64,000 nucleotides of DNA from Tetraselmis striata (Eukaryota > Chlorophyta > Chlorodendrophyceae > Chlorodendrales > Chlorodendraceae). Below are positions 1 to 55,400 of this stretch, piece after piece (the stretch's first letter is position 1; each line of letters opens with the position of its first letter). The stretch covers positions 1 to 64,000 of the forward strand of contig VCJN01001644.1 of the NCBI GenBank assembly GCA_006384855.1, read 5' to 3'. Below the pieces are notes generated by a model. It was not told the DNA's origin, made no database searches, and saw only the letters and a program-made list of their open reading frames with translations. The position numbers were made by a program, and so were the translations under genes.

Positions 1-2008
1 ACTTCACCCCGCACCCTCGCTAGTAATATCTTCCCCCACTCTCCACCCGTAATTGGCCACCCCACCCATGCAATGCATGTATGCATGCGCGGCGGCACGT
101 GCTCAGGGCACCAACCCTCCCAGCTGTACGGGGCAGGCTCATTTTCACTGGTGCTTTGGGCAGGGCAGCCGCCAATGATGGGACTACTCGGGCTCACCCG
201 TGGAGAAGTTGAGCTTGACCCGCTGCCGCTCCTCCCGCATGCGCCGCTTCTCCGCCGGGTCCGTCAGCGCCTCGAAGCGCCGCGCTGTGTACTCGCGTGC
301 GATGCGGTTGGCCAGCGCCTCCAGCTCCTTCTCCACAGCCAGGATGAGCGAACCCGGGTGGCTGGCCAGACATCGCCGGATGTCCTGTCAACATAGACAG
401 CTGTCAGCAGAAGGAGGTCGAGCACCCTGGACAATGACAGCGTGCGAGGAGAGGGGCACAGGCGGAGGGGGTGGACGGGGAAGAGGACAGGCACGCACGT
501 CCGCCATGAAGGGCTCCCAGATGTACGCCATCAGCGCCACGTCCAGCCCGTACGGCCAGCACGGACACATCGGCCGCTCGCCGCACCAGTGCAGCCGCCA
601 GCCGTTGATGAGCGACACCGTGGTCTTGGCACCCACATCGTCCTCGTGCCCGCGGGTTGGGCTGTTGTTCAACCTGGAGGGAAGGGAAAGGGGAAGGGAA
701 GGGGAGGCCGGGGGGGGGGGGGGGGGGGGGCACGCACTGGACCATGATCAGAGGCACTTACCAGCCTACCCATGCTGAAAGGGGGGCTGGAGCGGGGGGG
801 GGGGGGGGGGGGGGGGGGGGGGCTCCTCCCGCATCGCACGCAGCCGGGCTGCTCACCGCATGACCATAGTGTGGCCGTCGATCTCCGCGCCGCGGCCCTG
901 GCCCAGCATGGCGCCGCTGTTGCCCACAATCGCGCAGCTGTCCCACATCTGGGAGTGCGAGGGGTCCGAGCGCGGCAGCTGCGGGGCATGCGGGGTGCTG
1001 TGAGGCCGGGCTGCGGATGCGGGGTTGGCTGCCGTCGGGGAGCATGGCTGCAAGGGGAAACAAAGTGGGGGGATTGGGGACACCTTTCGCCAGTCGTCTA
1101 TGGATCGCTTCAACCTCTGCGGGGGCGGCGTCAATGGCTGGAGTTACCAAGGATCAGCCACCATTACGCATGTGTGCATGTGCGTTATTTGGGAGGGGGG
1201 GCACAGTTGCAACTGGATAGGTGGGCGGCTGGGTGCCCACCATGCGCAGAAGGTGCAGCACATACGTGCCCTGCCGCCGCATCTCAGCCACAGTGATCCC
1301 CGGCGGCTCCTGCGCGCACAGCTCACAGCGCCCTCGCTCAGCTGCGATCACCCCCCCCCCCCCCCCCCCCCCCCCCCCCCCGGCTTGGCGGCGCTTGCCG
1401 CATGCGCCGGTCGGCAAGGTTTGGTAGCGGGGCAGGATGGGAGGGCGGCACACACTTGAGACTCCATGGCTGGCTGCGGCGACGGTGCCGCTACGGCTTC
1501 TAATTGTGCTTTGGTAGGGGGTCCCGTCAAGCCTGTGGTGTCCACCCGGTGCAGAGCTCATCGGCGGGCGCGCAGGTGCAGTTACACTACCGGTGGCCCG
1601 TCGTCAGCACGCTTACCAATGTGCCCATCCCGTATACTTCAGCATGCGGTCAGGTGGGTAACGGCGCTCACCTGTTGGCATGATGGTGAGATTCGCGCTC
1701 CCTTGAGCAATCTGTTCGCCCGCACGCTGCTGGTAGCGGCTGAGCACGCCCGCGAGCGCCCCCTTGGATTGCGGCACGTCGCGCATGCCGAGCGTGTACG
1801 CCCAGTTCACCGCCAGCACGAAGCACACGAACAGCACGGTCACGTACAGCGCGAGCCGCCGCAAGCTGAAGCCCTGATGCTTGCCCACGCCCACGTATAG
1901 CGAGGCCGCGGCGGTTGAGGCGTCTATCGTAGTCGCCGGCTGGGCGGCGGCAGAGGCGGCACCGGTGGCCGGCCGCGACGATGGCCGGCTCGCCTGCCCC
2001 GTCGGCAT
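1..2008 (-). CDS. GT29 sialyltransferase-like protein, 5' part of gene
   Basis: This is a type II Golgi membrane enzyme of glycosyltransferase family 29, whose members transfer sialic acid or a related sugar from a CMP-activated donor. I model seven exons with consistent phases: 2008-1672, 1532-1456, 1309-1241, 1116-1084, 978-857, 673-499 and 384-198. Together they give about 333 residues before the gene leaves the window. The first ATG in frame is at 2008; upstream reading has only non-ATG starts. A membrane span (LALYVTVLFVCFVLAVNWAY) lies at residues 52-72 after a short cytoplasmic tail. Sialylmotif L starts at Cys187 (CAIVGNSGAMLGQG), continues with GAEIDGH, and crosses an exon junction into NNSPT and EDDVGAKTT. 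Motifs S, III and VS must lie beyond position 1. The 33-bp exon 4 and the exact end of exon 2 are the least certain. Algal and plant GT29 members often have unknown acceptors, so the substrate cannot be stated. Confidence 0.85.
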
Positions 2009-2129
2009 GCCGGCCAAGACAGAGTACACAGGGCCAAGCGAGTTAGCCCACGTCGCTGCTTTGCCCGTCGAGGGTGCTGGAGGGAGGGGTGTAGCGGGTT
2101 GTTTTTTTACCACCCACCCCACTTGCTGA

Positions 2130-52430: not shown

Positions 52431-52432
52431 TG

Positions 52433-55400
52433 TCAGGTGGAGGCCGGGGCGGTGCTGGGCGTGCCGCTGGGCGGGCGGAGCGACTCCAGCTCGGCTTGGG
52501 CGCCCTCGAGGTACTCCTCCGCAGCCTCCAGCCGGGCTTCCAGGTGCTCAATCAGCTGCGGCGGGCGCACGAGGAGGGAAAGGCCCGAGATTGTCAGCAC
52601 ATTGTGCACCCCCCCCCCCCCCCCACCATCCTGCGCGTACCGGTGCCAATTCAACGCGCGGACGTTTCCGTTTTCCCATGCACTGGCCTGCGGTTTGTAT
52701 GAATTCTGGATTATCAACTGCTGGGGTAGGGGAGTATATGCTTGTTTTCGAGGCGAGTCCAACTCTTGATGTCTGGAATTAAGTCAAAGAGCACGGTAAC
52801 ATCAACCCGATCACCAAAAACGCGCCCTGCCCTTTCTGGTGTCAACTGCAACGGAAAAATCTCGACGTAATGACCACGAAACTTTTGAACAACATTCGAC
52901 GGCACCGGTTTGTACGAGCAAAAGTAGTCGGTCTTTTAGGTGTAGAGGTGGCGCCTGCATGTCGGCGCCTGCAGGGGGAGCACTGAGGTTCTGAGAAAGA
53001 CACGCATCACCACCAGCCCGATGCGCACTGACCTGTGCCTTGGTGGTCAGCTCCTTGGACTGCTGGCCGAGGTGCTCGTGCGCATTCCGCATCTCGATCT
53101 CCAGCTGCTGCAGCTGCTCCACGTGCTGCCAGCTGTAGCTGCGGGCCTGCAGTGCGCGCGGCCAGCGGCACCGCGTCCGCCCCCGGGTCAGCTCAGCTCA
53201 GCTCAGTCGGGAGTTATGGGAGCAGCGATCGTGCGTTCCCACCACCGCCTGCAGGGCGCACCCGGCACCAGTCGCGCCGTCACTCCGGGGCTGCTTGCAC
53301 TCACCCTCACACCGAACAATAAAGAATTAAGCTATGCAGGCTAGCAGCAACCTATACACTTTGCCACCAAAAGCCATCATCCGTGCTGGCTATGCGATAA
53401 TTTGTATTTGCTCAAACCTGATATTCGCACCGCAGCTGGAGGCCGTCACGGTGACGTTTTTCAGCATAGCGTGTGCGCGACCAGCGCAGAGCTCATGCGC
53501 TGACACGGATCGGCATGTTGCAGGCACTGCATGAAGTGCCCCGAGACCGTGCGAGGGAGGGCGCTCTGAAATCCCAACTCTGACCACATTTCGTGTACCA
53601 AATGTCGTTATGAATAAACAAGCGCGTCCGATTGCGGTTGATGCAGCGATAGCATGTCTTTCTCAAACTTTCTGGAGAAAAATTGGGGGAAGGGGGGGGG
53701 GGGGGGGGGGGGGGGGGGGCGCACATTGTCCAGCTCCGCCTCCAGGTTCTGAATCCGCTCCGCCTGCTGCCGCTCCACCTCGCTCTTCCCCTGGTTCAGC
53801 ACCTGCAGCGCCTGCACGTGGGCCTCCGCCTCGGCGCAGCGGCTGCGGTACAGGCCGTTCGCCGCCAGCAGCTCCTCTGCGACAGTGCCCAGCACCTGCA
53901 GGTACCAGCCAGCAACATGGCCGCGTTTGAACATGCGGACCCCGGAAATGTGGGGAATCGAGTTGCGTGATCGCAAAGGTGTGGCGGGAGGAAGCCATTT
54001 GAGCCGAATTAACCTGATTCTGTAAAGTTCACTTCAGTTCCTGTTAACCAGGTAACTTTAGCTAAGTTCGATTTGACACTTACGTGCGGGATGAAGCTGA
54101 CCTAAGTGGCACCAAAATTACATGGACAAAAGGCAGATCATGTCAACGTTGTAGATGTCCTGGTCATGCCATCTGCGTGAGGCAGCTCACGTAGCGCTAA
54201 CATGGCGAACTGGGCTTTACTGGCGCCGTGGATTTCGCCTTGAGTTCAGGAGAAATCCCCTCAACTGGGTGGTATTACGTGACGCCCAAAAGTATCATGA
54301 GAGCTGCGAGTATGCCGGGAATCATATGATCTTTTGATACTAATTCACGAGAATCAGTATTACAACACTTTAATTCACCTGACCCAGGCGGGGGGGGGGG
54401 GGGGTCAAAATCCCGGCCACTGAATAATAGGGAACCCAATGAGTACAGCAATGCAAGCTTCGGATGCCCCCTCCCCCCCCCCCCCTCCCCACCTTGGCAT
54501 TGGCCTTGTCCGCCTTCATCTCGGCCTCCAGCAGCTCCGCCAGGCGCGCATGGCCAACGTCATCCTCAGCAGGGCAGCTCTCCGACGCGGCCGCCAGCTT
54601 GGCCAGCCCCGCCTCGGACAACGCCAGCCGCTCCTTCGCCCTCTGGAGCTCCTCCTGGAGCGCAGCGATCTGCGGCCCGCAACGCCCCGGACAGTGTCAG
54701 CGCGTGCCCGCGTGCCGACATCACCGGGATGACCACACACAGCGCCCCCCTGCCCCTCGCACCTGCAGATCCTTCGACTCGAGCTGGTCGAGCTGTGCGC
54801 CCGGCATCGCCGAGAGGGCGCTGTTGGTAGCGGTGGTGCGTGTCTGGAGCTCCAGCTGCGACCGGTTCAGCTTGCGCGTCAGCCGCTGCCGCTCCCCCGT
54901 CACGTACGTGAGCTTGTGCGCCAGCGTCTCGCGCGCCTTGATGTCTGCGGCGGGCGGAGCGCGGGGCGGCGGCAGGGGCGGGGTGAGTGACAGACCCGGG
55001 AGCCGCGAGGATGCGGTGGTGCGGCCGGTGGCCCCACCCTTCTTGCGCCGCTGCGACAGCTTCTGCAGCAGCGAGTCGTGGGTCCGCTGCAGCCGCTCCT
55101 GCGTGCGAGCCAGGCTGTCGTCCTCATCGAGCGTCTGTCGGAGGCCACAGGGTCGGCATGGCAGCGGTCTCAGCAGAATGAGGGTGCTGCCTTGGACCAC
55201 AACGGCCATTTGACGCTCGCGGGAGAGACTTGGTTGCTACTATTTCAGAGAGTGTGCAGCGACATGAAACAACACAATTTATTTTATTTCGGCGGGGGTG
55301 TGTTTCTGCACGGATCGTGACACCGCTCTATACCACGGCGACATCTAACAGCGATAGAAGGGAACGGTCGGGCACTCGTCGGGCCAATAAGCCGCATTGA

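What the first reader, a model, noticed from the sequence alone, without database searches (positions are those of the whole stretch)
692..54480. Long C or G runs placed at intron starts and ends across host genes
Runs of roughly 10 to 35 C or G lie in introns of the GT29, AKR-like and coiled-coil genes, and two AKR introns read GTG followed directly by the C run. Exons carry almost none. Either orientation occurs. This looks like a recurring intron feature and not random slippage. It could affect splicing through quadruplex or i-motif folding, or mark a family of inserted introns.
Basis: partly seen in the sequence, partly recalled or inferred. Interest (0 to 1): 0.7.

Follow-up and report, generated by a model that had tools for sequence, protein, structure and literature searches.

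The report
Long poly-C runs at intron starts
In this alga-like genome many introns carry a long run of C's just after the point where the intron begins, which looks like a fast-changing repeat sitting in a zone that may help mark the start of an intron, although a role in splicing is not shown.

Summary
The window has 29 C/G runs of 10 or more, none in a predicted exon. Genome-wide, GTG followed directly by C12 occurs 4,296 times against 476 for the mirror pattern. In 40 introns inferred from kinesin exon matches, picked before their DNA was seen, 6 of 13 sense C runs start within 20 nt of the donor (0.67 expected, p about 1e-5) and 0 of 13 end within 50 nt of the acceptor. Run density is 0 per kb in predicted exons, 1.0 in introns, 0.37 elsewhere. 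Intron starts are C-rich even with long runs masked, and hold about 4 times as many long runs per short C tract as deeper intron sequence. Three copy pairs differ in run length. The 17 early-C introns examined share no sequence with each other, against an introner family. Best reading: slippage-driven poly-C microsatellites in a C-rich zone below the 5' splice site, possibly an extreme form of the TIA-1/Nam8/RBP45 tract. Function is inferred; donors with runs are not weaker.

The parts
47473..48054 (+). RSP5 (AKR-like gene) intron beginning GTG + C33 (47476-47508, +4); also holds G29 (47667-47695) and C13 (47979-47991)
   Evidence: HMM gene model; run coordinates; boundaries not tested by alignment
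48151..48275 (+). RSP5 intron with C25 (48223-48247) at +73, 28 nt from the predicted acceptor; an exception to the start rule
   Evidence: HMM gene model; boundaries not tested by alignment
48399..48511 (+). RSP5 intron beginning GTG + C11 (48402-48412, +4)
   Evidence: HMM gene model; sequence
48823..49560 (+). RSP5 intron, probably GC-AG: AG|GCGCGCCT + C19 (48831-48849, +9); also C11 at 49311-49321
   Evidence: Exon aligned to RSP5 chain 7jtk_I ends at residue 220; the next exon, searched from its predicted start, aligns from residue 221. The HMM, which allows GT donors only, put the donor at 48781 (run then at +51)
49922..50773 (+). RSP5 intron GTGCGCGCTGGACG + C24 (49936-49959, +15); also G21 at 50512-50532
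   Evidence: HMM model; exons on both sides match Aldo_ket_red
47235..51469 (+). Gene for a radial spoke protein 5 homologue (aldo/keto-reductase family); two tiny upstream model exons left out
   Evidence: PF00248 E 9.6e-06 and 6.2e-06; PDB RSP5 E 5.1e-23 and 5.4e-21; model
674..856 (-). GT29 intron: sense C29 (794-822) at +35 and sense C21 (710-730), 36 nt from the acceptor
   Evidence: HMM model; in the model protein the GT29 match (residues 128-197, PF00777 E 4.6e-19) spans this splice
1351..1381 (.). C31 on + strand (sense G for the GT29 gene) in predicted intron 1342-1671, 9 nt from its predicted acceptor; this part of the model is weak
53126..53724 (-). Coiled-coil (GAS8/DRC4-like) intron GTGCG + sense C28 (53692-53719, +6)
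   Evidence: HMM model; gene label from a Pfam match below its cut-off (PF13851); acceptor uncertain
53896..54492 (-). Same gene, intron with sense G13 (54473-54485) at +8 and sense C15 (54390-54404) at +89; a G run near a donor, against the rule
   Evidence: HMM model
52556..53032 (-). Same gene, intron with sense G16 (52609-52624), 53 nt from the predicted acceptor
   Evidence: HMM model
12156..12593 (.). Three sense G runs (26, 14, 29) in predicted intron 11785-12756 of an unnamed gene; model weak here

Best explanation
The runs are length-variable poly-C/poly-G mononucleotide microsatellites, common throughout this GC-rich genome and absent from predicted exons. Inside genes they concentrate just downstream of the 5' splice site as C on the sense strand (GTG, GTGCG or GTGAG, then C10-C34). 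The most likely course: introns here begin with a C-rich zone (donor consensus roughly AG|GTGCGC), a GC-rich counterpart of the pyrimidine tract found about 5-25 nt below the donor in many eukaryotes and read there by TIA-1/Nam8/RBP45-type U1-associated proteins. That zone supplies C seeds. Replication slippage carries seeds past about 9 nt to a broad plateau of about 10-30 nt. In this place long C tracts are kept, because a pyrimidine tract below the donor is tolerated or mildly favoured by the splicing machinery, whereas most G runs near the donor and runs in exons are removed. Shown here: position, strand, C-rich starts, higher ratio of long runs to seeds, break and plateau in tract lengths, length differences between copies. 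Inferred: slippage as the motor, selection as the keeper, the kind of reader protein.
For: Genome-wide GTG+C12 4,296 vs mirror 476. Kinesin introns: 6 of 13 sense C runs start at +20 or less, 0.67 expected, p about 1e-5; sense G 0 of 4. HMM introns with runs masked: 7 of 16 sense C vs 1.07 expected; outside the window 3 of 5 vs 0.30. Over 94 introns: C in first 60 nt of 17, C in last 60 nt of 3, G in first 60 of 2, G in last 60 of 1. Density exon 0, intron 1.0, other 0.37 per kb. C fraction with long runs masked 0.34-0.38 at +4 to +20, 0.30 at +61 to +90. Long runs to C tracts of 4-6: 16:43 in the first 40 nt, 13:139 in the rest (p 0.0013), 50:968 C plus G outside gene models (p 9e-8). Tract counts fall to 6 and 4 at lengths 9 and 10, then 2-12 per length up to 29. 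Copies C26/C18, C31/C28, G32/G24. Known tract within ~20 nt of donors in almost all of 22 eukaryotes, in ~20-40% of introns (PMC2766253, passages); RBP45d in Arabidopsis (PMC9813592, passages).
Against: Donor match to canonical U1 is not lower in early-C introns: mean 5.65 vs 5.75 of 9, p 0.49 (17 vs 77 introns), so the compensation reported in most metazoans and A. thaliana is not seen. T is not enriched at intron starts, so this is a C zone and not a general pyrimidine tract. The known readers bind U-rich RNA. All 14 introns with a C10 in the first 45 nt have +3 G against 46 of 80 others (p 0.0016), which the model does not explain. One of 5 sense G runs in the HMM set also starts by +20. 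The random-sample set alone is small: 3 of 35 introns with early C. The run-centred test gave only a small excess over random positions.
Confidence: 0.45

Rival explanations
1. Neutral microsatellites only. The donor consensus is C-rich and so seeds C tracts; slippage expands them; exons purge them; no benefit to splicing. Position follows from composition plus a local mutational effect at intron starts.
For: C-rich starts without long runs; runs abundant outside gene models, 50 of 88; length differs among copies; break and plateau in tract lengths; donors with runs not weaker.
Against: Seed density alone does not account for it: long runs per seed are about 4-fold higher at intron starts than deeper in introns, while the last 40 nt, also C-rich (0.37), hold 3 long runs to 31 seeds. 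A local mutation bias could still explain this.
Confidence: 0.38
2. DNA-level role: poly(dG:dC) just inside introns positions nucleosomes or forms a G-quadruplex in the template strand that slows RNA polymerase II near the donor and aids co-transcriptional splicing.
For: Sense C means the G-rich strand is the template. In C. elegans intragenic G tracts also lie mostly on the non-coding strand, 84 vs 47 (PMC2211496, passages).
Against: No structural or chromatin data here; does not by itself explain runs starting at +4 to +15.
Confidence: 0.1
3. Introner-like mobile introns that bring the C run with them.
For: Introners occur in several algae, and some families use GC donors (PMC9860276, passages).
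Against: No hit between any two of 17 early-C introns; the hits to other contigs were the two duplicate copies L037 and L045. One early-C intron (window 49922) shares 77 nt at 77% with an intron that has no run, which looks like an ordinary dispersed repeat. Runs are also common outside gene models.
Confidence: 0.04
4. Assembly or sequencing artefact.
For: Run length differs (32 vs 24) between copies otherwise identical over about 690 nt, so called lengths may be unreliable.
Against: Runs lie between matched exons, are about equal on both strands overall, and track donors; an artefact would not know splice sites.
Confidence: 0.03

Closest known systems
Poly-G/poly-C tracts of Caenorhabditis (2007, PMC2211496; passages seen)
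   Same: Long C/G runs, 4 of 396 in exons, many in introns, G mostly on the non-coding strand (84 vs 47)
   Different: 396 tracts in C. elegans, and their location within introns is stated to be unbiased; here of the order of 100,000 runs of 10 or more by extrapolation, concentrated just below the donor
Tandem repeats in introns of Chlamydomonas and Volvox (PMC3887541; passages seen)
   Same: Repeats concentrate towards intron ends in green algae
   Different: There a U-shape at both ends with abundant GT/AC dinucleotides; here mononucleotide C, sense strand, start of intron
Pyrimidine tract downstream of the 5' splice site read by TIA-1/Nam8/RBP45 (PMC2766253, PMC9813592; passages seen)
   Same: Within about 20 nt of the donor, sense pyrimidine, in a minority of introns
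   Different: Known readers bind U-rich tracts, mean lengths 10-14 nt, linked to weak donors in most metazoans and A. thaliana; here pure C, up to 34 nt, no link to donor strength
Poly-C of Daphnia pulex (PMC3152781; passages seen)
   Same: Highest poly-C density of 12 genomes in that study
   Different: The word 'splice' does not occur in its main text
Introners (PMC9860276; passages seen)
   Same: Introns of algae with an odd recurring feature
   Different: No shared sequence in the introns examined here

Membership tests
Mononucleotide microsatellite (slippage-driven) | Pure runs far above chance length | tested here: met
   120 runs of 10-34; tract counts fall to length 10 and then plateau
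Mononucleotide microsatellite (slippage-driven) | Length differs between copies | tested here: met
   3 of 3 copy pairs compared differ; error in called length not excluded
Mononucleotide microsatellite (slippage-driven) | Mutation by slippage in the living organism | not testable with these tools
   needs mutation-accumulation or read data
5'-splice-site-downstream pyrimidine tract (TIA/Nam8/RBP45 type) | Sense-strand pyrimidine enrichment within about 20 nt of the donor | tested here: inconclusive
   C runs yes; outside runs C is enriched but T is low
5'-splice-site-downstream pyrimidine tract (TIA/Nam8/RBP45 type) | More frequent at weak donors (most metazoans, A. thaliana) | tested here: not met
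   5.65 vs 5.75 of 9, p 0.49, n 17 and 77
5'-splice-site-downstream pyrimidine tract (TIA/Nam8/RBP45 type) | Bound by a U1-associated RRM protein and enhances splicing | not testable with these tools
   no binding or splicing data
Introner family | Sequence similarity among introns | tested here: not met
   17 early-C introns, no hit between any two; local sample only
Introner family | Target site duplications or terminal inverted repeats (in part of families) | not tested
   no family to align
RNA G-quadruplex element | G runs in the transcript near the splice site | tested here: not met
   G in first 60 nt of 2 of 94 introns vs C in 17

The most novel reading that the evidence does not exclude
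This lineage uses a homopolymeric C tract directly after GTG (or GC) as an extended 5' splice-site signal, in thousands of introns, read by a dedicated poly-C-binding U1 partner, so that part of donor recognition has moved from U1 base pairing to a hypermutable tract whose length could tune splicing.
Probability: 0.17. Interest if true: 0.82.

Novelty: new variant of a known kind. Interest (0 to 1): 0.55.

Why it matters
If confirmed with RNA-seq, thousands of introns would carry a fast-changing homopolymer against the donor, a natural experiment on how tract length affects 5' splice-site choice and on whether microsatellites can become splicing signals. It also warns annotators: donors of the form GTG+C-run and GC+C-run are easily missed or read through as proline runs.

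Tried and rejected
Introner family: disfavoured by local BLAST of 94 introns against each other and against all fetched loci; a genome-wide search was not possible. C/G co-occurrence in one intron (possible pairing between intron parts): 5 of 8 G-run introns also have a C run, p 0.020 over 94 introns but 0.093 among introns of 200 nt or more; not pursued. Run-centred search for a coding exon just before a donor and run: at score over 5, 7 of 86 runs in C sense and 1 of 86 in G sense, random positions 5.0%; over 10, 5 and 0 of 86, random 2.1%: strand bias, but only a small excess over random. Some runs sit in dispersed repeats. GAS8/DRC4 label: Pfam match below cut-off, no PDB match at E 0.01. 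No Rfam match at gathering scores in the window. Literature listings for an earlier report of poly-C at intron starts (related listings 25, 30, 53, 54) show none in titles and abstract openings; most subscription papers are not in the library. Wanted but not obtained: a second triplet (CTG+C12) as control for GTG+C12, more families for introns (PF12774, PF00063), and flanks of listed GTG+C12 sites; the genome machine did not answer from then on.

Rows dropped before counts. From the listed kinesin exon matches I took by hand pairs close in profile and on the contig, before seeing their DNA; not all pairs were taken, and the list itself was capped. L033 was fetched and not analysed as introns. 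Five pairs shown were not carried into because the profile left a gap or overlapped (in L034, L036, L040, L042, L043); one of them holds a supportive GTAGC+C34 (L040, with a G14 too) and one a C20 deep in the gap (L043). Of 50 introns, 10 were left out of statistics: L024, L044, L054-L058 (boundaries doubtful), L061 (no exon context), and L037 and L045 (duplicate copies, both supportive: C28 at +15, C18 at +10). Of 114 HMM introns 54 were kept (exon scores over 6 on both sides, 40 nt or more).
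Full report
WHAT WAS CHECKED. The window is bases 1-64000 of contig C1329 of an unnamed 224.1 Mb genome in 2,903 contigs; its GC is 56%. It has 29 runs of C or G of 10 or more (11-33 nt) and only one A10 and one T10. Genome-wide there are 197,721 forward and 196,947 reverse 18-mers of pure C, so runs are about equal on both strands overall. In 15 stretches of other contigs (L009-L023, 132,825 nt; 5 of the 20 requested did not exist) there are 59 runs of 10 or more, and 3 of A or T, about 0.44 per kb. Extrapolated, that is of the order of 100,000 runs in the genome (my arithmetic, rough).

GENES. The 'AKR-like' gene is a radial spoke protein 5 homologue: Aldo_ket_red E 9.6e-06 and 6.2e-06 and PDB 'Flagellar radial spoke protein 5' E 5.1e-23 and 5.4e-21 (that these entries are from Chlamydomonas is recalled). 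GT29 is confirmed in a model protein (PF00777, E 4.6e-19). The coiled-coil gene resembles GAS8/DRC4 only weakly (PF13851 below its cut-off; no PDB match). A CG-1 (CAMTA-type) gene lies at 38737-40137. These point to a flagellate alga; that is inference.

INTRONS INFERRED BY HOMOLOGY. Splice sites were chosen by reading frame, donor GT/GC/GA, acceptor AG and profile spacing: 50 introns, 40 kept. Sense C runs start at +4, +4, +8, +8, +10, +15, +40, +40 and further in. Of 13 sense C runs in 10 introns, 6 start at +20 or less (0.67 expected if placed at random in the same introns, p about 1e-5, the floor of 100,000 trials) and 8 at +50 or less (1.87 expected); none ends within 50 nt of the acceptor. 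Of 4 sense G runs none starts by +20, one by +50, and one ends within 50 nt of the acceptor.

INTRONS PREDICTED AB INITIO. I wrote a small HMM gene finder, trained on the kinesin exons and introns, with runs of 8 or more masked so that they could not pull a donor towards them, and only -3 to +3 scored at donors (GT only). On introns it was trained on it found 28 of 35 exactly and the donor in 33 of 35; that is not an independent test. In window plus sample it gives 0 runs in 25,224 nt of exon, 38 in 37,825 nt of intron, 50 in 133,776 nt elsewhere. Of 114 predicted introns, 54 have well-scored exons on both sides: 16 sense C runs, 7 at +20 or less (1.07 expected); 5 sense G runs, 1 at +20 or less (0.19 expected). 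Outside the window (35 introns) 5 sense C runs, 3 at +20 or less (0.30 expected, p 0.0016). Over all 94 introns, C runs lie in the first 60 nt of 17 (kinesin 8 of 40, window 6 of 19, sample 3 of 35) and in the last 60 nt of 3; G runs in 2 and 1. The window is richer than elsewhere, as expected for a place picked for the feature.

GENOME-WIDE CHECK WITHOUT ANY GENE MODEL. GTG followed by C12 occurs 2,095 + 2,201 = 4,296 times; the pattern read backwards, C12 followed by GTG, 253 + 223 = 476. A second triplet as control could not be run. In window plus sample, among 79 runs of 12 or more, GTG precedes 5, ATG 3, CTG 1, TTG 1, and GTG follows none.

RSP5 IN DETAIL. Four of the six introns from 47235 on start with a C run: GTG+C33 at 47473, GTG+C11 at 48399, GTGCGCGCTGGACG+C24 at 49922, and, by alignment to RSP5, a probable GC-AG intron AG|GCGCGCCT+C19 at 48823 (residue 220 ends one exon, 221 begins the next). 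The HMM, limited to GT, put that donor at 48781. The intron at 48151 has its C25 at +73, 28 nt from the acceptor, and is an exception; the intron at 51038-51271 has no run.

WHY THERE. Intron starts are C-rich even with long runs masked: 0.34-0.38 C at +4 to +20, 0.30 at +61 to +90, with T low. Seeds alone do not explain the runs: long runs to C tracts of 4-6 stand at 16:43 in the first 40 nt, 13:139 deeper in introns (p 0.0013), 3:31 in the last 40 nt, and 50:968 outside gene models, C and G together (p 9e-8). Acceptor-side DNA is also C-rich (0.37). Tract counts fall to 6 and 4 at lengths 9 and 10 and then stay at 2-12 per length up to 29, as if runs grow once past a threshold. Three pairs of duplicate or allelic copies differ in run length: C26/C18, C31/C28, G32/G24, the last with flanks identical over about 690 nt; this means either fast mutation or mis-called lengths.

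FUNCTION. Many eukaryotes have a pyrimidine tract within about 20 nt of the donor in about 20-40% of introns (PMC2766253, passages), read by TIA-1, Nam8 and, in Arabidopsis, RBP45d (PMC9813592, passages). The runs here sit in that place. Against identity: C rather than U, T low, and no link to weak donors (5.65 vs 5.75 of 9 matches, p 0.49). All 14 introns with a C10 in the first 45 nt have G at +3 (46 of 80 others), which I cannot explain. I hold the mixed reading (slippage in a donor-side C zone that splicing tolerates or favours) at 0.45 and the purely neutral one at 0.38.

COMPARISON. C. elegans has 396 G/C tracts, with location in introns 'unbiased' and G mostly on the non-coding strand (84 vs 47) (PMC2211496, passages). 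In Chlamydomonas and Volvox tandem repeats concentrate towards both intron ends, with GT/AC dinucleotides abundant (PMC3887541, passages). The present case joins features of the two: poly-C, sense strand, intron start. The listings show no earlier report of it; the library lacks most subscription journals.

LIMITS. No RNA-seq; splice sites are inferred. One gene family gave the homology-inferred introns. The mirror pattern is a good but not complete control. Run lengths depend on an assembly whose method is unknown.

Noticed in passing
32135-32244: Perfect (TA)55 array, the highest-scoring tandem repeat in the window.
   Followed up: no
23879-25689: Retroelement frames: reverse transcriptase (PF00078, E 3.6e-15) and RNase H-like domain (PF17917, E 2.6e-05) in two neighbouring open frames.
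   Followed up: partly
21884-22288; L022 1164-1590; L019 2593 and L021 951: Dispersed repeats with C runs: window and L022 copies 81-90% alike, L019 and L021 96%. Some runs thus spread inside repeats.
   Followed up: partly
L031/L061, L032/L045, L036/L037: Near-identical copies of genes on different contigs: haplotigs or recent duplicates; the match list suggests more such pairs.
   Followed up: partly
48823: Probable GC-AG intron in RSP5; GC donors next to C runs may be more common and hidden from GT-only gene finders (other runs preceded by ATG: 47979, 48223).
   Followed up: partly
120 runs in window and fetched loci: Single-base interruptions differ by side: with 3 or more C beyond, 5' side T 13, G 4, A 2; 3' side G 16, T 14, A 5. 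The difference is unexplained.
   Followed up: partly
38737-40137: CAMTA-type transcription factor gene: CG-1 domain, E 1.8e-38, and a TIG match below its cut-off.
   Followed up: no
window 49922-50773 and L052: An early-C intron shares 77 nt at 77% with a kinesin intron without a run, probably a dispersed repeat.
   Followed up: no
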